Below, piece after piece: positions 8,257-22,481 of a stretch of DNA of 23,262 bases (position 1 is the stretch's first letter; each line of letters begins with the position of its first letter). Both the position numbers and the translations under genes were made by a program. The stretch is from a virus, in IMG/VR virus record IMGVR_UViG_3300042691_034692, positions 1 to 23,262 of that record. One strand, written 5' to 3'. Under the pieces are notes generated by a model. That model did no database searches, had not been told where the DNA came from, and saw nothing but the letters and a program-made list of their open reading frames with translations.

Positions 8257-10035
8257 TCAGAAAGAACTGAGCAAATTGGCCGTGCGTCTCGGAGCAAACT
8301 TACCCGTCGTCATCGTCTGCTTCCATTTCGTCTGACCTCCCCGTTTCCCACTGCCACCTTCCTGCGGAGGACGCATCCCAAACCGCTCACGGACGACATC
8401 GAGCATGACAAAGGCGGCATCGGCCACGTCCGGCGACCGACCGATCCTGGCTTTCATGTCGGTCTTGCTCTCGACTACGACCTTCATCGATCCGGACTTG
8501 CGGGTGTCGTAGTTCCGGCTGGTCATCTCCCGCGCCAGATCCGGACCGATCCCGCGAAGCTGACCGCTCGACAGGAATTCTTTTGCCCCGAACCAAAGCT
8601 CGGTGACCTTGTTGACATACTTCTCGTCGCCCGGCGTGGAATCGTAAGCCGAGAGCGATCGGCTCGACGGGGCTCCGCCGAAGTGGACACGTTGAAATTC
8701 ATTCGAGCCACACACCGTGGCCAGCGCATCGCAGAATGGCACCCCGCCGCCCGTCACGTCGACACCGACGTTCCGCCAAGGCACGCCCGCCTCGTTGACG
8801 ATCTGCTGGATCTTCCGTGCGATCTGGAAGGTGCGCGGCTCGGGGTTGCTCGCCTCTTCGTCTAGGAAGTGGAAGGTATCAAATGATACCTGGTCGGCCC
8901 CGTCTTTGTTCTGGCCAAAACTCCCGAGATAAAGCACACATCTGTCCCCGCCGCTCACAAAGGAAGGGTCGATTCCGGCCACGCGCTCGACTCGGCCCTT
9001 CCAGATCGGCTTCTGGTCCGCTTGAAAGCGGACGATCTCGGCCTCGCTGTAAATCGCCTTACTGACTGCCTGCGGGGGCCAAAAACCCCGGTAGTCGCGC
9101 CAGAAGATCGGGTTGTCCTCCCCGAGCCGCTCACGGGCCTCGTCGATCTTTTCGAACTTTTGGATCGGCCACTTGTTCTCGCCGGCCAAATAGTTCGGAT
9201 TTTTCAGCGCGTCGAGGTGCAGACAGACCCCACCGATCTTCGTCTCCCAGCGGTCGTCGTTGACTGAAATACTCCCCCACCCGTTGACTGGCTCCACGAA
9301 CCGCCCGAACGGATCGTAGTAAGAGACAGGGTTCGCTGCCGCGGAGATGTGAAGCTCGGGGTTGTTGGAAAGGTTCGAAAGCGCCGTATCGAGGAAAGCA
9401 TGGCCAAGCTCCGAAAGCTCATCGGCCGCGACAATGACCCGGTGGGCCTTCATGCCTCGCATTTTTCCAGTCACTTCTGAGGTCTTCTTTGCTTCGGCCG
9501 GAATCAAGTAAACCCCAGCCTGCTCCATCCGCTCGCCGTTGCGGATCGCGTAGATCGCCGGAGTCGGAGTATCGGCCAGCTTGCCGGGGGCTACGGATTT
9601 AATGCACGGCCAATACCGCTGGATGGCTCCCCAGACCCGCTTCTTGGCATCACGGATCGAGGTGCTGGTGACCAGCGAGAGCGTATGGAACGGAGCCGAA
9701 AGCCAGTTGAGCAAAGCCCACACCGCCATGAATTCCGACTTGCCAGAAGAACCGCAACCGGCGAAACCCACGAACTTGTGATGACAGCACTCGTAGAGCA
9801 TGTCCTCGGCCCACGGATGCCAAATGAAGTTCTCCGACTTCTTGTGGAAGAACATCTGGGCGGCATTTTTGAAGTGATGTTCCTTCGAAAGAACCTCCAT
9901 CCCCGCGGTGTCCATCCCGCGAAAACAAAACAACTCAATCGCCCAGTCCGCGGTGTGTTGAGGCCACCATGCGCCGTAGCGTTGGAACGAACCGGCCGGC
10001 GGCTGAATGCCGGATTTCACTAAAATCAAAGACAT
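8257..10035 (-). CDS. terL: Terminase large subunit
   Basis: The 592-residue protein is the DNA-packaging motor. The N-terminal ATPase has Walker A FAGCGSSGKS (residues 91-100, Lys99) and Walker B VIVAADE (Asp205, Glu206), followed by a SAAANP segment like a coupling motif. The C-terminal RNase H-like nuclease has AGIDPSF (Asp356), VGVDVTGGG (Asp426) and SPDVADAAF (Asp536, Asp539), the three acidic positions expected for the metal site. The length is usual for large terminases. The basic C-terminal tail (GKRGGQTKWKQ) may contact the portal. It is the first gene of the leftward operon. No small terminase subunit was recognised in the window. It acts in the cytoplasm, docked on the portal. Confidence 0.93.
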   Translation of the reverse strand: MSLILVKSGIQPPAGSFQRYGAWWPQHTADWAIELFCFRGMDTAGMEVLSKEHHFKNAAQMFFHKKSENFIWHPWAEDMLYECCHHKFVGFAGCGSSGKSEFMAVWALLNWLSAPFHTLSLVTSTSIRDAKKRVWGAIQRYWPCIKSVAPGKLADTPTPAIYAIRNGERMEQAGVYLIPAEAKKTSEVTGKMRGMKAHRVIVAADELSELGHAFLDTALSNLSNNPELHISAAANPVSYYDPFGRFVEPVNGWGSISVNDDRWETKIGGVCLHLDALKNPNYLAGENKWPIQKFEKIDEARERLGEDNPIFWRDYRGFWPPQAVSKAIYSEAEIVRFQADQKPIWKGRVERVAGIDPSFVSGGDRCVLYLGSFGQNKDGADQVSFDTFHFLDEEASNPEPRTFQIARKIQQIVNEAGVPWRNVGVDVTGGGVPFCDALATVCGSNEFQRVHFGGAPSSRSLSAYDSTPGDEKYVNKVTELWFGAKEFLSSGQLRGIGPDLAREMTSRNYDTRKSGSMKVVVESKTDMKARIGRSPDVADAAFVMLDVVRERFGMRPPQEGGSGKRGGQTKWKQTMTTGKFAPRRTANLLSSF

Positions 10036-10182: not shown

Positions 10183-10237
10183 TGGTTTACGAAGAATCTT
10201 TTAGTTATTTTTATGTGGGGTTATGTCGATTTTTGAA

Positions 10238-10249
10238 CGATTCTACCCA
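10238..10249 (-). repeat. Right arm of 12-bp perfect inverted repeat
   Basis: CGATTCTACCCA is the exact reverse complement of 10049-10060. It lies between two possible integrase starts (10223 and 10268), which supports the later start if the arm is a DNA-binding site kept free of coding constraint. Confidence 0.65.
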
Positions 10250-10267
10250 ATTCTGGTCATAATCCTC

Positions 10268-11482
10268 ATGGACAATTTTAAGGTTCTCGATTCGAAAAAA
10301 GGCACGGAGGTTCGGCTTGGCGATTCGGTCGTTAAGATAAACCCGATCCAGACCGGACGCTACACGACCTACCGCTTGACGTGGTATGTGGGAGACAAAC
10401 GCTTCCGGGTCACACGCGCCGACAAGAACGAGGCGATCGAACTGGCGAAGCAAAAAGTGCGGCACCTCTCCCGCGCCGAGGGTGAGCACACCAGGGTCGA
10501 CGCGGCTCGGCTGGTCTATCTGCTGGAGTGCGAGAAAAGCGTGGCTCCGCATCAACTCCACAAGGCGTGTGAGTTCTTCCGAAAGTTCCACGTCTTGAGT
10601 TCGAAGGGCAAAAAATTCAGCGAGATCTGTGATGACTTGGTTGCCGACATCAAAGCAAAGAATCTCTCGAAAGACCACGAGCAGACGGTCAGTTCCCAAG
10701 TGAAAACCCTGAAGTCATGGTTTCCCAAGGAAACGATGCAGCAGATCACTCCGCAAAGCCTGGAGCGCCGATTGCGTGAATCGCACTTCGCCCCCTACAC
10801 CCAGCACAAGTTTCTGAGCTTCTACCGGACAATCGAGAATTTTGCCAAGAAACGGCGCTACCTAACCGACGACCACCAGACGATCGCCGACCAAGTCACG
10901 CTCATGGCGATACCGGAAGGGAACTACCCTGTATTCACGCCGGAGCAGTTGATGAGGTTCCTCATCGCAGTGAAGCCCAAGGAATTGGCTTATGTCGCGA
11001 CAATGGCGTTCGGCGGGGCAAGACGCAACGAATGCACTCAGATGACCAAAACGCACTTCAACTTCGAGGAAAAGACCGCGCACGTTGACCGAGTCATTGC
11101 CAAGAAGACCCTGCCGCGCCACATCTTCACTCCCGATTGCCTATTCGAATGGCTCAATCTGGCGACCTTCCCGGAGGCCGGTCCGATAATGACCGAGCGC
11201 AAAGTCGGAAATATTTCCCGCGACGTGGCCAAACTCAAGCAAGTCGGTCTGGCTGGTTGGGAGGACAACATCCTCCGACATTCGTTCTTGAGTTATCACC
11301 TCGCAGCTTACCAGAATCCGCACAACACCGCCTACCACGGAGGAACCTCGATCAAGATGCTATCAAAACACTACGTAGCCTTGGTGAGTAAACGTGCCGC
11401 CGAGGAGTGGTTTAATATCACACCAATATCAGTGCGCGAATATGCGGAGAAACAAGGATTGACGCATTTAATAACTTGGTAA
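10268..11482 (+). CDS. int: Tyrosine recombinase (phage integrase)
   Basis: The 404-residue protein (start MDNFKVLDSKKG) catalyses site-specific integration and probably excision. An N-terminal strand-rich DNA-binding region is followed by a helical core-binding domain (HVLSSKGKKFSEICDDLVADI). The catalytic domain has AFGGARRNECTQM (box I Arg, about residues 252-253), ILRHSFLSYHLAA (Arg337) and a box ending SIKMLSKHYVALVS with nucleophile Tyr369. The His of the usual HxxR is replaced by Asn, and the pattern LRHSF-SYHLA plus AAEEWFNITP resembles PVC-group integrases as I recall them. An upstream ATG at 10223 would add 15 residues. I prefer 10268 because the upstream segment covers the inverted-repeat arm. 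Confidence 0.9.
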   Translation: MDNFKVLDSKKGTEVRLGDSVVKINPIQTGRYTTYRLTWYVGDKRFRVTRADKNEAIELAKQKVRHLSRAEGEHTRVDAARLVYLLECEKSVAPHQLHKACEFFRKFHVLSSKGKKFSEICDDLVADIKAKNLSKDHEQTVSSQVKTLKSWFPKETMQQITPQSLERRLRESHFAPYTQHKFLSFYRTIENFAKKRRYLTDDHQTIADQVTLMAIPEGNYPVFTPEQLMRFLIAVKPKELAYVATMAFGGARRNECTQMTKTHFNFEEKTAHVDRVIAKKTLPRHIFTPDCLFEWLNLATFPEAGPIMTERKVGNISRDVAKLKQVGLAGWEDNILRHSFLSYHLAAYQNPHNTAYHGGTSIKMLSKHYVALVSKRAAEEWFNITPISVREYAEKQGLTHLITW

Positions 11483-13115: not shown

Positions 13116-15536
13116 ATGACGACCAAGTCGTTCAACCTTTTCCCATACCAAAAGGAAGCAGTCGAACGCCACCTCAAGATCCTCGATTCGGTCGGCTCGT
13201 CACTCGACGGGACCGGATGCGGAGGAGGTAAGACAGTCATCGCCTCCAGTGTAGCTGCCAAGTTCGCTTTGCCTATTGGGGTGATCTGCCCAAAGAGCGT
13301 GGTCGCCAAGTGGACAGATACCCTGTCCAGCTTCGGGGTCGAGCCCCTCTTCGTCCTGAACCCCGAAAAGTTACGGAACGGGAACACGCCACACCTCAAG
13401 AAAGTCTCCAAGGGAGGGAAAAAGGCGGTCTTCGAATGGCAGGTTCCCGCTCGGTGTCTCTTCATATTCGATGAAGTCCACATGTTCGGAGCCTACAACT
13501 CACAGAACGGCAAGATGCTCGAAGCCGCGGCCGGGCACTATGTCCTCATGCTTTCGGCCACCGCCGCCGAGAACCCACTCCGGATGAAGGCGATTGGCGT
13601 CAACCTGCGGCTATTCACTCCGAATTATTTTTGGAAATGGGTGCGCGAGATGGGAGCCGAAGAATCACGCTGGGGTGGCCTCGAATGGAACCCCAAGCTG
13701 CCGGCCAACAAGGTCGCGATGGAGCGGCTACACAATTCGATATTCGTGAATAGAGGATACCGGGTCTCCGAAGAAGTTCTCCGTGAACAGCTTCCGGAAC
13801 TGATGACCGAGGACGATCCGCTGTGGCTGAGTGCCAAAGACAAAGCGACGATCAAGGAACTCTACGATGAGATGGCCGACCCGGACGATCCTGGTGGGGT
13901 CAAGAACCTGCGGCAGCGCCAGGCGATCGAACTGGTCAAAGTTCCCTACATCGTTGAACGCGCCAAGGAGATCGTCGAGTCCGGTGGCTCGGTTGTCCTC
14001 TTCCTGAATTTCCATGAAAGCATCGATCAAGCACACAAACAATTCCCCGAGGCTGAAGTCATCGACGGTCGCGTCTCGGCTGATAAACGACGAGCCATCC
14101 AAGACCGCTTCCAACGAAACGAGTTACGGGCCGTCGTTGTTCAAATCGCAGCAGGAGGACAATCCATCGACCTCCATGACCTCGACGGAAGTTATCCGCG
14201 AGTTGCTCTTCTTTGCCCCCAGTTCTCCGGCACCGTCGAAGAACAAGCCGTCGGACGGATATGTCGCGTTGGTGCGAAGTCTCGTGCTCTCGCCATTCGC
14301 CTCTACGCGGGAGGCACCGTTGAGCAAGCTGCGTTGAAACTGACCGCCGAAAAACGGGAAAATGTGGCGATATTAAATCGTGGGGAAAATATTTTGAACG
14401 GGAGTCAATGGGGTGATGTCTGTATTTCCATGTCTAGTGGAATAACCCCACAACTGCCCGAAGAAAAAGAGCACAGCGAGCACTCCCCCTCCTCTCTCAA
14501 GGAGAAAGCGAAATGCCCTGGTTTTCGCAACGATCAGACCCGCGACAACACCGCGGCGAACCGAGGAACCCTCGGCCACCTTGCGGTGGAGAAAGAAAAT
14601 CTCGATGTCATACCGCCGGATGACCCGAAGCTGCGGGAAGCGGCCGACATGTGCCTCAAATACCTAGCCTCACTCCGCAAACAAGTCGGCCCACACAAGG
14701 AGCTCCGCGAGCAAAAATATCACATGCAGGACCAGTTCGGTCACGTCGACCACATCATCCTGCACGGCGACAAAGCCGAGTTGATCGATTACAAGTTTGC
14801 CTTCGGCGAATACGTGGCCGATTCACCGCAATTTTGGGCGTATGCCGTCGGTCTCTGGGATGCCCATCCCGAGGTCAGTGAGATAACTGTGCATGTGCTT
14901 TTGCCCTTTCGCGGGGTCATCGATCGAGAGTCGTTTTCTCGGGAAAAAGATTACGACAGACTCTCAGCGCAAATCACCGCCATCATCGCTGCTGCGAGGC
15001 GGGATGACCCCGCGACCTATTTGACCGGATCGCATTGCGCTTGGTGCGCGAAACAGGCGAGTTGCCCGAAGCTGTCGTCACTCGCACTGACGATCGCCAC
15101 CGAATACAAGGCCGACGAACTCGCACTACCGGCGCAATACGATCCGGCGAACATCACTGACCCGCACGTTATTGCGCTCGCCAAACGGGCCGCGCCGATA
15201 ATGAAAAGCTGGGCCGATAAAGTTGACCAACGCGCTCTCCAGATGCGCCTCGAAGAGGGCATCGAAATCCCCGGCTACGAACTGGCCGAGCGTGCCCTCC
15301 CCTTCAAGGTCACCGACGCCCAGAAAGCATGGGACGTGGTCCGCGACCGGATCAGCCCCGAGGCATTTGCTGCCTGCGCCGAAGTATCAATCGGTGCGCT
15401 AGAGAAAGCCATCGCCCGCACCGCACCTCGCGGTGAGATGAAACGGGCCAAAGACAACCTTCGTGACGCATTGGTTGACGCCGATGCGGCCCGCTCAGAG
15501 GGAGCGTATCACTACCTCAAGAAACAGAAATCATAA
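13116..15536 (+). CDS. SF2 helicase fused to Cas4/RecB-like Fe-S nuclease
   Basis: The 806-residue protein joins two enzymes. Residues 1-450 are a SNF2/DEAD-type helicase with Walker A TGCGGGKT (Lys39), DEVH (119-122), LSATAAENP near 146 and a motif VI QAVGRICRVGAK near 377. Residues 460-660 are a PD-(D/E)XK nuclease of the DUF2800/Cas4 kind, with GHVDHIIL (Asp545) and AELIDYKFA (Asp558, Lys560). Cys467 in KCPGF and Cys641, Cys644 and Cys650 in CAWCAKQASC are placed as for a 4Fe-4S cluster. The final 150 residues are helical. In other phages the two activities are often separate genes. Residues 440-465 form an AT-richer, Glu/Ser-rich linker. It probably unwinds and resects DNA during replication or recombination. 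Confidence 0.82.
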   Translation: MTTKSFNLFPYQKEAVERHLKILDSVGSSLDGTGCGGGKTVIASSVAAKFALPIGVICPKSVVAKWTDTLSSFGVEPLFVLNPEKLRNGNTPHLKKVSKGGKKAVFEWQVPARCLFIFDEVHMFGAYNSQNGKMLEAAAGHYVLMLSATAAENPLRMKAIGVNLRLFTPNYFWKWVREMGAEESRWGGLEWNPKLPANKVAMERLHNSIFVNRGYRVSEEVLREQLPELMTEDDPLWLSAKDKATIKELYDEMADPDDPGGVKNLRQRQAIELVKVPYIVERAKEIVESGGSVVLFLNFHESIDQAHKQFPEAEVIDGRVSADKRRAIQDRFQRNELRAVVVQIAAGGQSIDLHDLDGSYPRVALLCPQFSGTVEEQAVGRICRVGAKSRALAIRLYAGGTVEQAALKLTAEKRENVAILNRGENILNGSQWGDVCISMSSGITPQLPEEKEHSEHSPSSLKEKAKCPGFRNDQTRDNTAANRGTLGHLAVEKENLDVIPPDDPKLREAADMCLKYLASLRKQVGPHKELREQKYHMQDQFGHVDHIILHGDKAELIDYKFAFGEYVADSPQFWAYAVGLWDAHPEVSEITVHVLLPFRGVIDRESFSREKDYDRLSAQITAIIAAARRDDPATYLTGSHCAWCAKQASCPKLSSLALTIATEYKADELALPAQYDPANITDPHVIALAKRAAPIMKSWADKVDQRALQMRLEEGIEIPGYELAERALPFKVTDAQKAWDVVRDRISPEAFAACAEVSIGALEKAIARTAPRGEMKRAKDNLRDALVDADAARSEGAYHYLKKQKS

Positions 15537-17204: not shown

Positions 17205-17473
17205 GATCCTTCACCGTTGTCATTGACGAGGATGTTCCGGTCTCGGAGAAACGCTCGACCGAACGCTCCCGCTACCAGCACCCGCTCTCTTGGCTTCTCC
17301 CGAAGCTGAACATCGGAGACTCGTTCATTTATCCGGCCTCGACCGGAGAGAAGATAAACGGACTACGCGGCATCGTCTCAGGCTACGCGAAATCACGGAA
17401 AGTGAAGTTCGCTACCAGGACCGTGCAAGACCATGAGGGCGTCGACCGCCTTCGCATCTGGAGGACTGCATGA
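17201..17473 (+). CDS. Conserved small phage protein
   Basis: The 90-residue product starts MRSFTVVIDEDVPVSEKRST. It contains LLPKLNIGDSFIYPAS, GIVSGYAKSRKVKFATRTV and ends GVDRLRIWRTA. The order GDSF, a basic AKSRKVKFATR strand, and R-WR at the end is a pattern I recall from many short phage proteins of unknown function. No membrane or catalytic motif is seen. The ATG at 17201 overlaps the previous stop (ATGA), which decides this start over a longer upstream reading. Its stop overlaps the next gene. Confidence 0.6.
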   Translation: MRSFTVVIDEDVPVSEKRSTERSRYQHPLSWLLPKLNIGDSFIYPASTGEKINGLRGIVSGYAKSRKVKFATRTVQDHEGVDRLRIWRTA

Positions 17474-17598
17474 CCGCGGGCTCGTTTCTCCTCGGCATGG
17501 CCGTTGGGCTGATCCTTGGCGGACTCGCAACCTACGGGGCGATTTTCGCCTGGGCGCTGGGCTACAAACTTCGGGAGGACGAAGAAGATGCCGAGTGA
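17470..17598 (+). CDS. 42-residue membrane microprotein
   Basis: The product MTAGSFLLGMAVGLILGGLA continues TYGAIFAWALGYKLREDEED. It has one long hydrophobic stretch (residues 5-31) with small residues, then an acidic tail. It looks like a single-pass membrane peptide. It overlaps both neighbours and is the third small membrane protein in this gene chain. Function unknown; a holin-like or membrane-anchoring role cannot be judged. Confidence 0.45.
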   Translation: MTAGSFLLGMAVGLILGGLATYGAIFAWALGYKLREDEEDAE

Positions 17599-17749
17599 TC
17601 CAGACCAAGACTACGACGAGGGTCGTTCGCTCGAAGCGGAAGACGCCCGCTACTGGAGACGACGCTCCGATCCAGCCGAAGACTGGTGCCAGGAATGCGA
17701 CCGCTTCGGTTCGGAGTGCCGGTGCGATCCCGACAACTTACATGAATAG
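17588..17749 (+). CDS. Small acidic protein with CxxC zinc-binding pattern
   Basis: The 53-residue product starts MPSDPDQDYDEGRSLEAEDA and contains Cys34, Cys37, Cys44 and Cys46 in DWCQECDRFGSECRCDPD. Four closely placed Cys suggest a small zinc-binding knuckle. The protein is otherwise acidic and hydrophilic. It overlaps the microprotein before it by 11 bases and the gene after it by eight. It may be a protein-binding adaptor; no family is recognised. Confidence 0.5.
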   Translation: MPSDPDQDYDEGRSLEAEDARYWRRRSDPAEDWCQECDRFGSECRCDPDNLHE

Positions 17750-17939
17750 CGACTACACAATCGGTCGCATCAACTTCGGGCCGCGTGATTCTTTCACAAC
17801 GCTCGGACAACTGATCGACGAAATCGCAGCCCAGGAGGAATTGGTCGACGACCTCTGTCTCTTTGCCGGCGAACAACTCACCAAGGTCGAACTCCTCAAA
17901 GAGTGCCTGCCCCCCGTCACCGAACCCTACGAACTATGA
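17742..17939 (+). CDS. Small hypothetical protein
   Basis: The 65-residue product (MNSDYTIGRINFGPRDSFTT) has a helical region LGQLIDEIAAQEELVDDLCLFAGEQLTKVELL that could form a coiled coil. No family is recognised. Its stop overlaps the exonuclease start (ATGA), so translation is likely coupled to the polymerase genes. Its constant position in the overlapping chain supports it being real. Confidence 0.5.
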   Translation: MNSDYTIGRINFGPRDSFTTLGQLIDEIAAQEELVDDLCLFAGEQLTKVELLKECLPPVTEPYEL

Positions 17940-18433
17940 CCACCACTTTTCCGGTTCCCGAGACCAAATCAACGCTACAACCGTCTGAGGGGGCGGTGCG
18001 CCAACCAGTCCTCGGGAGCCGGTGCTCTTCCGTCGCGATCGATTTTGAATCGTATTACGACACCGACTGCTCAGTCACCACGATGGGTGCGTGGCACTAC
18101 GCCCGCGCCACCGACATCTACATGGTGTCGATGTATTTCGAGGACGGTGATGCCTACGTAGGTTCCCCGTTCAAAGCGCCGTGGGACGAGTGCGACGGGC
18201 TGAACTGGATCATGCACAACGCTGCCTTCGACCTGACGCTCCTCGACGCGCTCATCGAGTCCGGCACCGTGCCCCCAGTGAAACCACGGTTCGTCTTCGA
18301 TACCGCCGACCTCGCTGCCTACCTGGGCTACCCCAGGTCGCTCAAGGAAGCCGCCTCGGAGCTCCTCGGAATTCAGATGAGCAAGGCCACCCGAACCAAC
18401 ATGAAAGGGATGATATGGACAAAGGACTCCTGA
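17936..18433 (+). CDS. Family A DNA polymerase, 3'-5' exonuclease fragment (exo I and II)
   Basis: The 165-residue product is the first part of a split polymerase. VAIDFESYYDT gives exo I (Asp36, Glu38) and IMHNAAFDLTLL gives exo II (Asn95, Asp99). FDTADLAAYLGYPRSLKEAA and ELLGIQMSKATRTNMKG follow, as in intact phage polymerases just before exo III. The frame then stops at 18433 after WTKDS, and the exo III motif is absent. It appears instead at the start of the gene at 18780. The stop is a TGA with another frame already begun 18 bases earlier. The two halves must associate, or be joined by another mechanism, for proofreading to work. Confidence 0.8.
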   Translation: MTTTFPVPETKSTLQPSEGAVRQPVLGSRCSSVAIDFESYYDTDCSVTTMGAWHYARATDIYMVSMYFEDGDAYVGSPFKAPWDECDGLNWIMHNAAFDLTLLDALIESGTVPPVKPRFVFDTADLAAYLGYPRSLKEAASELLGIQMSKATRTNMKGMIWTKDS

Positions 18434-18624
18434 AAGTATTCACCGCGATCAGCGGATGGCAGACGCCCGAAGACTTCGGCAACGAGAACGAGGGCTACGT
18501 GACCTTCGAACGCGATCCAAAAACCCAACGCAAATCGGCGTTCCTCTGGAGGGCCGACATGTCACACGAGCACCTCCAAGCGATGTGGCTCAGTGACCAG
18601 ACATTTGTCAGATATGAATCCTAA
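18415..18624 (+). CDS. Inserted small frame within split polymerase
   Basis: The 69-residue product MDKGLLKVFTAISGWQTPED continues GNENEGYVTFERDPKTQRKS and a WRADMSHEHLQAMWLSDQTF segment. It is not similar in any way I can see to a polymerase or to a known intron-encoded nuclease. It starts inside the end of the exonuclease gene and overlaps the following small gene by 11 bases, the same arrangement as the neighbouring real genes. It occupies the place where the exo domain should continue. It could be a real insert gene or a remnant. Confidence 0.5.
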   Translation: MDKGLLKVFTAISGWQTPEDFGNENEGYVTFERDPKTQRKSAFLWRADMSHEHLQAMWLSDQTFVRYES

Positions 18625-18787
18625 AATCAAAAAGCTCATCGACCAAGGCCGGCTGCTGCCGATCTTCGCCAAGTCCGGCGAGGACTTCGCCCTGGTCGGT
18701 TACCGCCGCAAGCCCGGTAGCCGGAAGTCGCATCTGCGGCCTTACCTGCTCCCCCAACCTATCCGGATTCCCAAGCCCAGTGCCTAA
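18614..18787 (+). CDS. Second inserted small basic frame within split polymerase
   Basis: The 57-residue product (MNPKIKKLIDQGRLLPIFAK) is basic, with GEDFALVGYRRKPGSRKS and a Pro-rich end (LLPQPIRIPKPSA). It overlaps the preceding insert gene and the GTG start of the polymerase gene by eight bases. The high Lys/Arg content would suit nucleic acid binding, but no motif is diagnostic. Together with the previous frame it forms the block between exo II and exo III. Confidence 0.5.
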   Translation: MNPKIKKLIDQGRLLPIFAKSGEDFALVGYRRKPGSRKSHLRPYLLPQPIRIPKPSA

Positions 18788-20156
18788 GTCACCCTACATG
18801 ACCAACGACTTCAAAAAAGAAGTCGCCCGCTACGCGCTCTATGACGCGAAGGCCACCTTCCTGCTCTGGAAGGAGCACGGCCACAAGATGCCCGATCACG
18901 AGTGGCGTATCTCAGCCATGACCCGCAAGATGGGAATGCGCGGGGTGCCGGTCAATATGGAGAAGCTCAAGGCCGCGGAAGCCAAGCTCATCGAGGAGAA
19001 GCGCCGAGCCGAAACACTCCTACCTTGGATCGGCGGCGAGTATCCTCCGTTGTCGCTACAGGCGATCCGCGACCAGTGCGAGAAGGAGGGCATCCGCTCG
19101 CCGAAGTCCTTTGCCGAGAAAGATCCGGAAGGTGCGGCATGGGAAGCAGAGTTCTCCGACACAATCCCGTGGGTCCGGGCGGTGCGTGAATACCGCAAAG
19201 CCAACAAACACCTGAAGACCGTGCAGGCGATGATCGCCCGGACGCGGCCGGATGGTCGCATGGGCTACGAACTCAAATACTTTGGTGCCACAACCGGACG
19301 TGATTCCGGGGGCGGTGGCTGGAACGCCCAGAATATCCCGAAGGGCGAAGTGGCCGGCGTGGACATCCGCAACCTCATCGAGGCTCCCGCGGGGAATACA
19401 CTCGTCATCTGCGATCTTGCCCAGATCGAGGCGCGGTGTCTGCCTTATCTCGCCAAAGACTTTGATCTTCTCAAACTGATCTCTACTGGAATCGACATCT
19501 ACGAGGCGCACGCCAGGGCGACGATGGGATACAACGATCCCCGTCCGCTCAAAGATGTGGATCCGAAGATGCGCTTTCTGGCCAAGGCCCGTGTGCTCGG
19601 TCTCGGTTACGGCTGCGGGGCCGTGAAGTTCCAACTAGTCGCCAAGATGCTGGCCGGACTCGACATATCCCTTACCGAATCGCAATCGATTGTGAAGTCC
19701 TACCGGGAGTCTTCCCCGAAGATCACCGCATTCTGGGCCAAGCTGGATCGTTTCCTGCGGATGTCGACCGACCCGAACGATGGAGAATTGACCGTTCCCC
19801 TACCCTCCGGACGAGAACTTGTTTACCGCAACGTGCGACGGATCACCGGCAACATCGTCGCCAAGCTCCCGCGGCTCGGGAAGCTCATGGACGTGAAGCT
19901 CTACGGCGGACTGCTCGCTGAAAATGCCACGCAGGCACTTGCCCGCGATGTCTTCATGGACCGCTGCATGGCACTGGAAGACGCTGGTTATGAAATCCTC
20001 ATGCGTATCCACGACGAAGTCGTCGTCTTGGTCGATGAATATGACGCCGAAGATCACCGCCAAGTGATCGAAGAAATCATGTCGACCCCACCCATTTGGG
20101 CCTCGGACCTCCCGCTGGGAGCCGAAGCCATTGTCTCCAAACATTACAGAAAATAA
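18780..20156 (+). CDS. Family A DNA polymerase, exo III and polymerase domain
   Basis: The 458-residue product supplies the rest of the polymerase. VARYALYDAKAT (Tyr18, Asp22) is the YxxxD exo III motif missing from the upstream fragment. The polymerase domain has TTGRDSGGGGWNAQNIP (Arg174), motif A ICDLAQIEARC (Asp212), motif B RFLAKARVLGLGYG (Arg265, Lys269, Tyr277) and motif C MRIHDEVVVL (His411, Asp412, Glu413), so it is expected to be catalytically complete. Motif A has Ala where Ser is usual (DLAQIE for DYSQIE). The start is GTG, overlapping the previous gene; an ATG at 18798 is an alternative. It probably replicates the phage genome with the downstream primase-helicase. Confidence 0.88.
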   Translation: MPKSPYMTNDFKKEVARYALYDAKATFLLWKEHGHKMPDHEWRISAMTRKMGMRGVPVNMEKLKAAEAKLIEEKRRAETLLPWIGGEYPPLSLQAIRDQCEKEGIRSPKSFAEKDPEGAAWEAEFSDTIPWVRAVREYRKANKHLKTVQAMIARTRPDGRMGYELKYFGATTGRDSGGGGWNAQNIPKGEVAGVDIRNLIEAPAGNTLVICDLAQIEARCLPYLAKDFDLLKLISTGIDIYEAHARATMGYNDPRPLKDVDPKMRFLAKARVLGLGYGCGAVKFQLVAKMLAGLDISLTESQSIVKSYRESSPKITAFWAKLDRFLRMSTDPNDGELTVPLPSGRELVYRNVRRITGNIVAKLPRLGKLMDVKLYGGLLAENATQALARDVFMDRCMALEDAGYEILMRIHDEVVVLVDEYDAEDHRQVIEEIMSTPPIWASDLPLGAEAIVSKHYRK

Positions 20157-20162
20157 TAACTG

Positions 20163-22481
20163 ATGAATCCCACACCTGAAGAACTCGGACTCAACCCCTG
20201 CCCAACCTCCGGCCAAGGATGCCACACCTGGATGTTCGGGGCAGCGCACGCGCTGGTTGCTAACGCCTATGATGACCAATTTATTGACTCATGGGTGACT
20301 CATTACTTGGGGCGTGACCCGCAGCCCCGTGAGATCGGCGACACGATCGCCAATGTCCGCGCCGAGGCCGAAGGTCTCATCGAACCGCGGGCAAAGGTTT
20401 CGCTCAAACGGGATCGGGACGAAGACCGTCTCAAGGCGGCTACCGCCGAAGGTCCGCTTTCGATCGAGGATTTCAAGGCCACCTCCCCTATCCCGCCGGC
20501 TGATGTCTCGACTTCCGAGTTCCTGCGCCATCTCTACGGCGGCAAGCACAACATCGTCTTCGTCGATCAGCAGACCCAAGGGAAGCTGGTGTGGCACGAG
20601 AAAGTGCCGGACATCGCCGTGGATCAAGCGATCACCAACAACACCGAGGGTGCGTGGATCATGGTCAATCCGGTCGATGGCCAATTCAAAGCGATCGAAC
20701 GACTCGGCAAGAAGTCGCGCCGGGCCGAGGAGAATCTTGTCGCCTACGAATACCTACTCATCGAATCGGATTCGGTTGAACTGGAACTCTGGCTCCGCGT
20801 CCTCTCCAAGCTCAATCTCCCGATCGTCTCGGTCACTACCTCCGGATCCAAATCGGCCCACGCCCTCGTTCGGGTCAGCGCCAAGGATCGTGCCGAGTAT
20901 CTGGAGAAAGCCTCCGAGATCGCCGATGTCCTCGTCCCGCTCGGTGCCGACCCCGCCGCAATGTCGGCCGTGCGCCTGACCCGGGTTCCAGGCTGCATGA
21001 GGAAAGATACCGGAAAGGCCCAAACCCTTATCTACTTCAACCCGGAAGCTGGCCGCGCCACCGATCAAGAGGGAGGGGGACAATCTGCCACCCCCCTTGC
21101 CGATAACTGTCAGGATTCGCCAGATAGCAACAATTCGTCATCCAAGACGAATAAGAGCGGACAGTTTGAAGACATCTACTACGACGGCAAAACTTTCTTT
21201 ATGAAGGCCGACGACGGGATCTGGCGCTACGAGATGGTCGCCATGCTCAGTTCCGAACTCAAATGCCGCGGGTTCAGTGACCGCGCCCCGAAGGGTGCCG
21301 CCATGTCACCGATGGACCGCGCCAAAGCCTTCATCCGCGAACACCGTCGCGTGGACGGTGCAGGCCCAAGCCTCTACAACAAAAGCGAACTCTGGTTCGA
21401 GGGCGGCAAGAAGTTCCTCAACACCGCCAAGAACATCAAACTCGTCAAAGCGGCCGACACCGCCGGGGCTTGGGGTGAAGGATTCCCCCGCTACGCGGCG
21501 ATCTTCGACAACGTCTTCCTCTCCGACGGCTACAAGGACATCTTCCTCGCTTGGTTCAAGAGGTTCTACGAGTCCGCGGAACGCGGCAAACTCTCGATGG
21601 GCCAAGCGATGATCTTGGTCGGCCCGGTGCATTGCTTCAAAACCTTTATGATCGAGAAGCTGCTCAAGCCGGCAATGGGCGGCTACGCGGATCTTTCCTC
21701 GATCGTCTCGGGCGAAGGAAACGGATTTAACGCCGACCTCTTTCAAAGCCCGCTGGCCATCATCGACGACTCCCGTGCCGCGGAATCCGAAGCCCAACTC
21801 AACCGCTACGCTTCGGCAATCAAGAAGCTGGTCGCCCACGGCACCCACAAATACCACGAGAAGTATCTGACCCCGATCATGGTCGAGTGGCGCGGCCGTG
21901 TCGTCATCGCAGCCAACGACGACCCCGTGTCGATCAAAGCCGTGCCGGCGCTCAACATCTCGAATGAGGACAAGATCATCGCCCTCGCCATGAGAACCTT
22001 CGAGGACGGCCCGACGGTCGAGACCCTCAAGGACGTGGAGTCTGAACTCCCGGCGCTGCTCGCTTGGCTCAAGGCGTGGGAAATCCCACCGCGCTACATC
22101 GACGCCCCGAACCGCTATTACATCCGCAGCTACATCGCTTCGGAAGTCCGCGAGAAGATCGAAGCCGCTTCACCGGCCGCAGTGCTCCGCGATGTCCTCC
22201 TCTCATGGTGGGCACGGCGCGGGACAACCGATCCGTGGGAAGGCACCGCGGTCGAACTCCACCAGTCCTTCAGCGACACCTTCGACAACTCCGGGATCAC
22301 CCGCGAGTGGACGGCAAGGGCGATCGGACGCCGCCTCTCCGAGTTGGAGAACCAAGGCGACCCGAACGTGAAGCTCATCGCCAAGCGGTCGGGCAAGGCC
22401 AAGGTCCACAAATACCGCCTCACCTGCCCGAACCTCGAACCCGACGAGCCCGAGGAAGAAGACGCGAACAATCCGTTTTGA
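20163..22481 (+). CDS. Primase-helicase (AEP-type primase plus SF3-like helicase)
   Basis: The 772-residue product joins priming and unwinding. Residues 1-70 are a helical segment (GCHTWMFGAAHALVANAY) like PriCT domains. Residues 195-280 match an archaeo-eukaryotic primase pattern: LLIESDS (201-204), VTTSGSKSAHALVRV with the S-G-x-K-S-x-H motif, then RLTRVPGCMRK. Residues 300-335 are a Ser/Asn/Asp linker. The helicase part has ILVGPVHCFKTFMIEK (Lys493, Thr494) and AIIDDSRA (Asp535, Asp536), as in SF3/D5-type proteins, but Phe492 replaces the usual second Gly of Walker A. It starts after TAATAACTG following the polymerase stop and should act at the replication fork. Confidence 0.78.
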   Translation: MNPTPEELGLNPCPTSGQGCHTWMFGAAHALVANAYDDQFIDSWVTHYLGRDPQPREIGDTIANVRAEAEGLIEPRAKVSLKRDRDEDRLKAATAEGPLSIEDFKATSPIPPADVSTSEFLRHLYGGKHNIVFVDQQTQGKLVWHEKVPDIAVDQAITNNTEGAWIMVNPVDGQFKAIERLGKKSRRAEENLVAYEYLLIESDSVELELWLRVLSKLNLPIVSVTTSGSKSAHALVRVSAKDRAEYLEKASEIADVLVPLGADPAAMSAVRLTRVPGCMRKDTGKAQTLIYFNPEAGRATDQEGGGQSATPLADNCQDSPDSNNSSSKTNKSGQFEDIYYDGKTFFMKADDGIWRYEMVAMLSSELKCRGFSDRAPKGAAMSPMDRAKAFIREHRRVDGAGPSLYNKSELWFEGGKKFLNTAKNIKLVKAADTAGAWGEGFPRYAAIFDNVFLSDGYKDIFLAWFKRFYESAERGKLSMGQAMILVGPVHCFKTFMIEKLLKPAMGGYADLSSIVSGEGNGFNADLFQSPLAIIDDSRAAESEAQLNRYASAIKKLVAHGTHKYHEKYLTPIMVEWRGRVVIAANDDPVSIKAVPALNISNEDKIIALAMRTFEDGPTVETLKDVESELPALLAWLKAWEIPPRYIDAPNRYYIRSYIASEVREKIEAASPAAVLRDVLLSWWARRGTTDPWEGTAVELHQSFSDTFDNSGITREWTARAIGRRLSELENQGDPNVKLIAKRSGKAKVHKYRLTCPNLEPDEPEEEDANNPF

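What the first reader, a model, noticed from the sequence alone, without database searches (positions are those of the whole stretch)
17936..20156. Family A DNA polymerase split inside its proofreading domain, with two small frames wedged between
Seen: exo I (Asp36, Glu38) and exo II (Asn95, Asp99) lie in a 165-residue gene that stops after WTKDS. Exo III (YALYD) and polymerase motifs A, B and C lie in a separate 458-residue gene. About 350 bases with two overlapping small frames (69 and 57 residues) sit exactly where the domain should continue. Known: in family A enzymes exo I-III build one active site, so the pieces must reassemble for proofreading. Inference: trans-association of halves, RNA-level joining, or a proofreading-defective enzyme supported by the inserts. 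The inserts show the same start-stop coupling as their neighbours, which argues against simple decay.
Basis: partly seen in the sequence, partly recalled or inferred. Interest (0 to 1): 0.82.

Follow-up and report, generated by a model that had tools for sequence, protein, structure and literature searches.

The report
Phage polymerase split within proofreading domain
In one clade of phages, probably of Verrucomicrobiota, the DNA polymerase gene was cut once, in a surface loop of its proofreading domain, so two proteins made from neighbouring genes must meet to complete one exonuclease site; split phage polymerases are known, but not, as far as I found, cut here and in this way.

Summary
Exo I/II (17936-18433) and exo III plus polymerase (18780-20156) are separate genes with two small overlapping genes between. 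It is not decay, misassembly, an intron, an intein or a frameshift. All split loci (15 distinct sequences from independent metagenome records) form one well-supported clade; intact relatives lie outside it. Every exo I/II/III residue is kept and both halves are under purifying selection. The gap is 349 to 3446 bp, in all three relative frames, filled with different genes. In a confident model of a nearest intact relative the break lies in a surface loop just before the exo III helix. The first small gene (P2) is not a foreign wedge: in the nearest intact relatives it sits directly after polA, so the fission reordered exo-pol-P2 into exo-P2-(cargo)-pol. In 15 of 16 loci the pol start (ATGCCTAA) supplies the upstream gene's stop codon, whichever gene that is: pol is made as its own chain by coupled translation. 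Best reading: a two-subunit family A polymerase whose proofreading site reassembles in trans. Precedents exist (T4-like 43A/43B, NrdA of Aeh1, OM43-phage PolA), so this is a new variant of a known kind. Trans-assembly is inferred, not shown.

The parts
17936..18433 (+). exo half of family A DNA polymerase: exo I (D36, E38), exo II (N95, D99); 165 aa; start overlaps the previous gene by ATGA
   Evidence: (PHROG_17 DNA polymerase 7e-9)
18415..18624 (+). P0002 (P2), 69 aa, no known family; first gene after exo in nearly all split loci; lies directly after intact polA in the nearest intact relatives
18614..18787 (+). P0003 (P3), 57 aa, no known family; in most split loci, position varies, absent from L003 and from intact relatives
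18780..20156 (+). pol half: exo III (Y18, D22) and polymerase motifs A, B, C; 458 aa, GTG start; its first residues (VPK) match the loop of the nearest intact relatives
18780..18787 (+). GTGCCTAA coupling overlap: start codon of pol and stop codon of the gene before it; same arrangement in 15 of 16 loci whichever gene lies upstream
20163..22481 (+). primase-helicase gene directly after pol (context; in the nearest intact relatives it follows P2 and a methyltransferase)

Best explanation
A resident family A polymerase gene of a phage lineage (hosts probably Verrucomicrobiota) was broken once, in a surface loop between exo II and the exo III helix, by a rearrangement in its own operon that turned exo-pol-P2 into exo-P2-(variable genes)-pol. 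The two halves are translated as separate chains from one overlapping, translationally coupled gene string and associate non-covalently, so that the exo III helix on the pol chain completes the DEDD proofreading site on the exo chain. Shown: the split, its single origin, its site in the predicted fold, the conserved catalytic residues, purifying selection, the reordered P2, the conserved start-stop overlap. Inferred: association in trans, active proofreading, and the rearrangement path (tandem duplication with complementary deletion, or a block shift).
For: Split clade monophyletic with 100/99 support, one change on the tree, against 45 intact sequences; a wider scan of pol relatives added no further split. 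All exo I, II and III residues invariant in 14 split loci; dN/dS exo 0.24 whole gene or 0.18 domain only, pol 0.12. Nothing homologous lost at the junction: KGM.W | VPK...MTNDF against GRHYHLPPGVIVPKRKRMDNDF in L057. Intact L057 model pLDDT 92.4; the junction loop (residues about 126-145) is a local confidence minimum (block mean 78) between H120-125 and the exo III helix H146-173; best PDB matches are PolA/Klenow, best E 2.7e-24. The exo half alone is predicted to keep the central sheet (block means 84 or above for residues 31-150) and matches DEDD exonucleases weakly. P2 directly follows intact polA in L057, L060, L066, L063, L065. Start-stop overlap kept whichever gene precedes pol. The family A polymerase is single in each of 8 split and 10 intact records, and no DnaQ-type (PF00929) substitute was found in 15 records.
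Against: No binding or activity data, and no complex model could be run. The exo half evolves relatively faster in the split clade (exo/pol distance ratio 1.51, 95% CI 1.06-2.06) than in four intact clades (0.53-0.92), though the nearest intact clade (1.32, 0.87-1.95) overlaps; some relaxation is possible. The duplication-deletion path has no surviving intermediate.
Confidence: 0.8

Rival explanations
1. The polymerase works but proofreading is weakened or lost: the pol chain acts alone and the exo chain is vestigial or has taken another role.
For: Exo half evolves relatively faster in the split clade; its N-terminal 30 residues are poorly conserved and predicted disordered.
Against: All exo I, II and III residues kept in 14 loci at synonymous divergence near 0.5-1 per site; exo dN/dS about 0.2; exo is never missing where the contig reaches it.
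Confidence: 0.13
2. Rival for the origin only (compatible with trans-assembly): a foreign mobile gene (homing endonuclease-like) inserted into polA and split it, as with seg or mob genes in T4-like phages; later genes piled in.
For: Gap is a gene-turnover hotspot with 349-3446 bp of varying genes; precedents in PMC2988022.
Against: No endonuclease family in the window inserts or in seven cargo proteins tested; two of these match only PHROG 18407, function unknown. The gene common to the gaps, P2, is a neighbour of polA in intact relatives. Independent insertion of a mobile P2 beside and inside polA is not excluded.
Confidence: 0.25
3. The halves are joined at RNA or protein level by an intron, trans-splicing or split intein.
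For: Phage polymerase genes often carry group I introns or inteins (PMC10580990, PMC6892783).
Against: No intron family found; gap in all three frames and without common non-coding sequence; exo stops within about 10 residues of the break and pol starts at its own codon, leaving no intein halves; the gap is fully coding in the shortest loci.
Confidence: 0.03
4. Misassembly, sequencing error or recent pseudogene.
For: Intact relatives exist.
Against: Same split in 18 further records from different metagenomes, with purifying selection on both halves.
Confidence: 0.01

Closest known systems
Split gp43 (43A/43B, family B) of T4-like Aeromonas phages 25 and 44RR
   Same: Phage replicative polymerase encoded by two adjacent genes; the halves of phage 25 co-purify and have polymerase activity (PMC2988022)
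   Different: Family B; separated by an untranslated stretch or a seg endonuclease gene rather than by a resident gene plus varying cargo
Split PolA of OM43 phages MEP401/MEP402 and relatives
   Different: Break lies inside the polymerase domain (ORF13 holds the exo domain and the N-terminal polymerase part), not between exo II and exo III; origin of the small gene not traced
Split NrdA of phage Aeh1 (mobE insertion)
   Same: Enzyme split in a functionally critical region, assembled in trans and active (PMC2988022)
   Different: Other enzyme; insertion is a homing endonuclease
Intact PolA of nearest phage relatives (L057, L063, L016) and Klenow fragment
   Same: Same fold, domains and catalytic residues
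   Different: Single chain

Membership tests
Family A DNA polymerase (PF00476) | polymerase domain with motifs A, B, C | tested here: met
   PF00476 98.9 bits against cut-off 34.3; D212, R265, K269, H411-D412-E413 invariant
Family A 3'-5' proofreading exonuclease (PF01612) | exo I, II, III residues D,E / D / Y,D | tested here: met
   all present across the two chains in 14 loci
Family A 3'-5' proofreading exonuclease (PF01612) | domain on one polypeptide, Pfam score over cut-off | tested here: not met
   exo chain 20.9 bits against cut-off 23.6, profile 75-136 of 173; the domain is shared by two chains
Split phage polymerase assembled in trans | two adjacent genes that together cover one enzyme, conserved in relatives | tested here: met
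Split phage polymerase assembled in trans | halves bind and restore activity | not testable with these tools
Group I or II intron | ribozyme core between the halves | tested here: not met
Split intein | intein N and C parts fused to the halves | tested here: not met
   exo ends within about 10 residues of the break; pol has no in-frame start upstream in the window; no family hit
Homing endonuclease insertion | endonuclease gene in the gap | tested here: not met
   no such family in the window inserts or in seven cargo genes tested; other cargo genes not scanned

The most novel reading that the evidence does not exclude
The proofreading domain has become a separable subunit whose joining to the polymerase is set by translation coupling and by the small proteins between, so that these phages can tune replication fidelity; P2 and P3 would be assembly or switch factors rather than bystanders.
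Probability: 0.08. Interest if true: 0.8.

Novelty: new variant of a known kind. Interest (0 to 1): 0.52.

Why it matters
It is a natural case in which one catalytic site (DEDD: exo I/II on one chain, exo III on the other) is divided between two gene products and kept that way across a diverse phage clade. It offers a ready-made split-proofreading polymerase for testing how domains reassemble and whether fidelity can be supplied in trans. The reordering of a neighbouring gene, with variable cargo then held inside the former gene, points to gene fission by rearrangement within an operon rather than by a parasitic insertion. It also shows how such an enzyme escapes annotation: the exo half falls below the Pfam cut-off.

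Tried and rejected
Intron, intein, frameshift or readthrough, misassembly, decay, foreign endonuclease in the window inserts or tested cargo, a second polymerase or DnaQ exonuclease that would make the split one dispensable. A microhomology between the exo 3' end and the pol 3' end/P2 start (ATGAAATG) was considered as a deletion joint, but the KGxxW it rests on is also the ancestral loop sequence, so it was not used. Five apparent splits in my first table (L058-L060, L108, L109) were artefacts of match starts upstream of the true start; L088 is a frameshifted contig; none belongs to the clade. No exo-half relative was found in the annotated phage collection. Literature searches found no report of this split, within an open-access library only.

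Full report
Observation. The window holds four overlapping + strand genes: exo 17936-18433, P2 18415-18624, P3 18614-18787 and pol 18780-20156. Exo carries exo I and II, pol carries exo III and the polymerase motifs. P2 and P3 match no family in Pfam or PHROGs.

Relatives. A scan with pol found 24 phage loci, a scan with exo 80, and a scan with a pol alignment 69. Eighteen further records are split in the same place; the others are intact, apart from loci cut by a contig end and one frameshifted contig. On a maximum-likelihood tree of 60 pol sequences the 15 distinct split ones form one clade, support 100/99, one change of state. Relatives in bacterial genomes, all intact, are in Verrucomicrobiota, which suggests the hosts.

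Where it is cut. Exo ends at ...KGM(K/I)W (KGL(K/R)W in L003 and L055) plus a few residues that differ between loci; pol begins VPKSPYMTNDF or MPKSPYMTNDF. In the nearest intact relatives the chain reads GRHYHLPPGVIVPKRKRMDNDF, in others GKKWEEMTDDF. So the pol start codon stands where the valine of VPK stood, and at most about seven residues of a lineage-specific loop are gone. In a model of intact L057 (mean pLDDT 92.4) this loop is a local confidence minimum between helix 120-125 and the exo III helix 146-173; the fold is PolA/Klenow. The exo half alone is predicted to keep the sheet of a DEDD exonuclease. By established knowledge of the Klenow fragment, the exo III aspartate takes part in catalysis, so the exo chain alone should be inactive (not tested here).

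Selection. Exo I, II and III residues are invariant in 14 split loci; median dN/dS is 0.24 (exo), 0.12 (pol), 0.19 (P2) and 0.18 (P3). The exo half changes somewhat faster relative to pol than in most intact clades, so mild relaxation is possible. Each of 18 records examined has one PolA locus and, in the 15 examined, no DnaQ-type exonuclease.

How it arose. P2 follows exo in the split loci (in L004 one more gene stands between; L053 is spaced likewise). In the nearest intact relatives P2 follows pol, in L057, L060 and L066 with an ATGA overlap, and is followed by a C5 methyltransferase and the primase gene. In split loci pol lies directly before the primase gene. Gene order thus changed from exo-pol-P2-X-primase to exo-P2-X'-pol-primase, taking the intact order as ancestral because all other relatives are intact. 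Tandem duplication with complementary deletion, or a block shift, would give this; an independent insertion of a mobile P2 is the alternative. P3 is absent from the intact relatives, and no other cargo match was found between the two intervals.

How it is expressed. In 15 of 16 loci the pol start ATGCCTAA or GTGCCTAA supplies the stop codon of the gene upstream, although that gene is of at least four kinds: P3, TPET-type coiled proteins, a PHROG 18407 protein and the L012 protein. This points to translation of a separate pol chain by termination-reinitiation (inference). Gap lengths fall in all three frames, no intron family is present and the sequence before pol differs between loci, so joining by splicing, frameshift or intein is very unlikely.

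Comparison. Split phage polymerases are known: 43A/43B in T4-like phages, where the halves of phage 25 co-purify with activity (PMC2988022), and PolA of OM43 phages, cut within the polymerase domain (PMC10580990). What differs here is the cut inside the proofreading site, the neighbouring gene moved into the gap, and the variable cargo. I found no report of this form, within the limits of the library.

Verdict. A real, stable, single-origin gene fission; most likely a two-chain polymerase with a proofreading site assembled in trans. New variant of a known kind. The association itself remains to be shown at the bench.

Noticed in passing
window 18780-18787 and pol starts of L004, L006, L009, L012, L013, L022: Different genes upstream of pol all end in the same overlap, so new genes join exactly at the pol start codon; the joint looks like a recombination or selection hotspot.
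   Followed up: partly
window 13116-15536: 806-residue protein with a helicase part (PHROG 62) and an exonuclease part (PHROG 69) in one chain.
   Followed up: no
window 10223-11482 and 8257-10035: Integrase and large terminase genes: the phage may be temperate.
   Followed up: no
window 17433-17939, 17470-17598, 17516-17749: Three overlapping frames that all have matches in relatives; in L063 the short 17470 frame is far better conserved (69%) than the long one (36-46%).
   Followed up: no
L014 5297-5500: P2 carries an internal stop codon in one relative, so it may be dispensable there or the base is an error.
   Followed up: no
L115, L116, L119 (Pontiella and relatives): Intact PolA frames in these bacterial genomes contain in-frame extra stretches of repeat-like composition.
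   Followed up: no
L004, L008, L013, L022 gaps: Cargo gene of PHROG 18407 (unknown function) recurs in the gap between exo and pol.
   Followed up: partly
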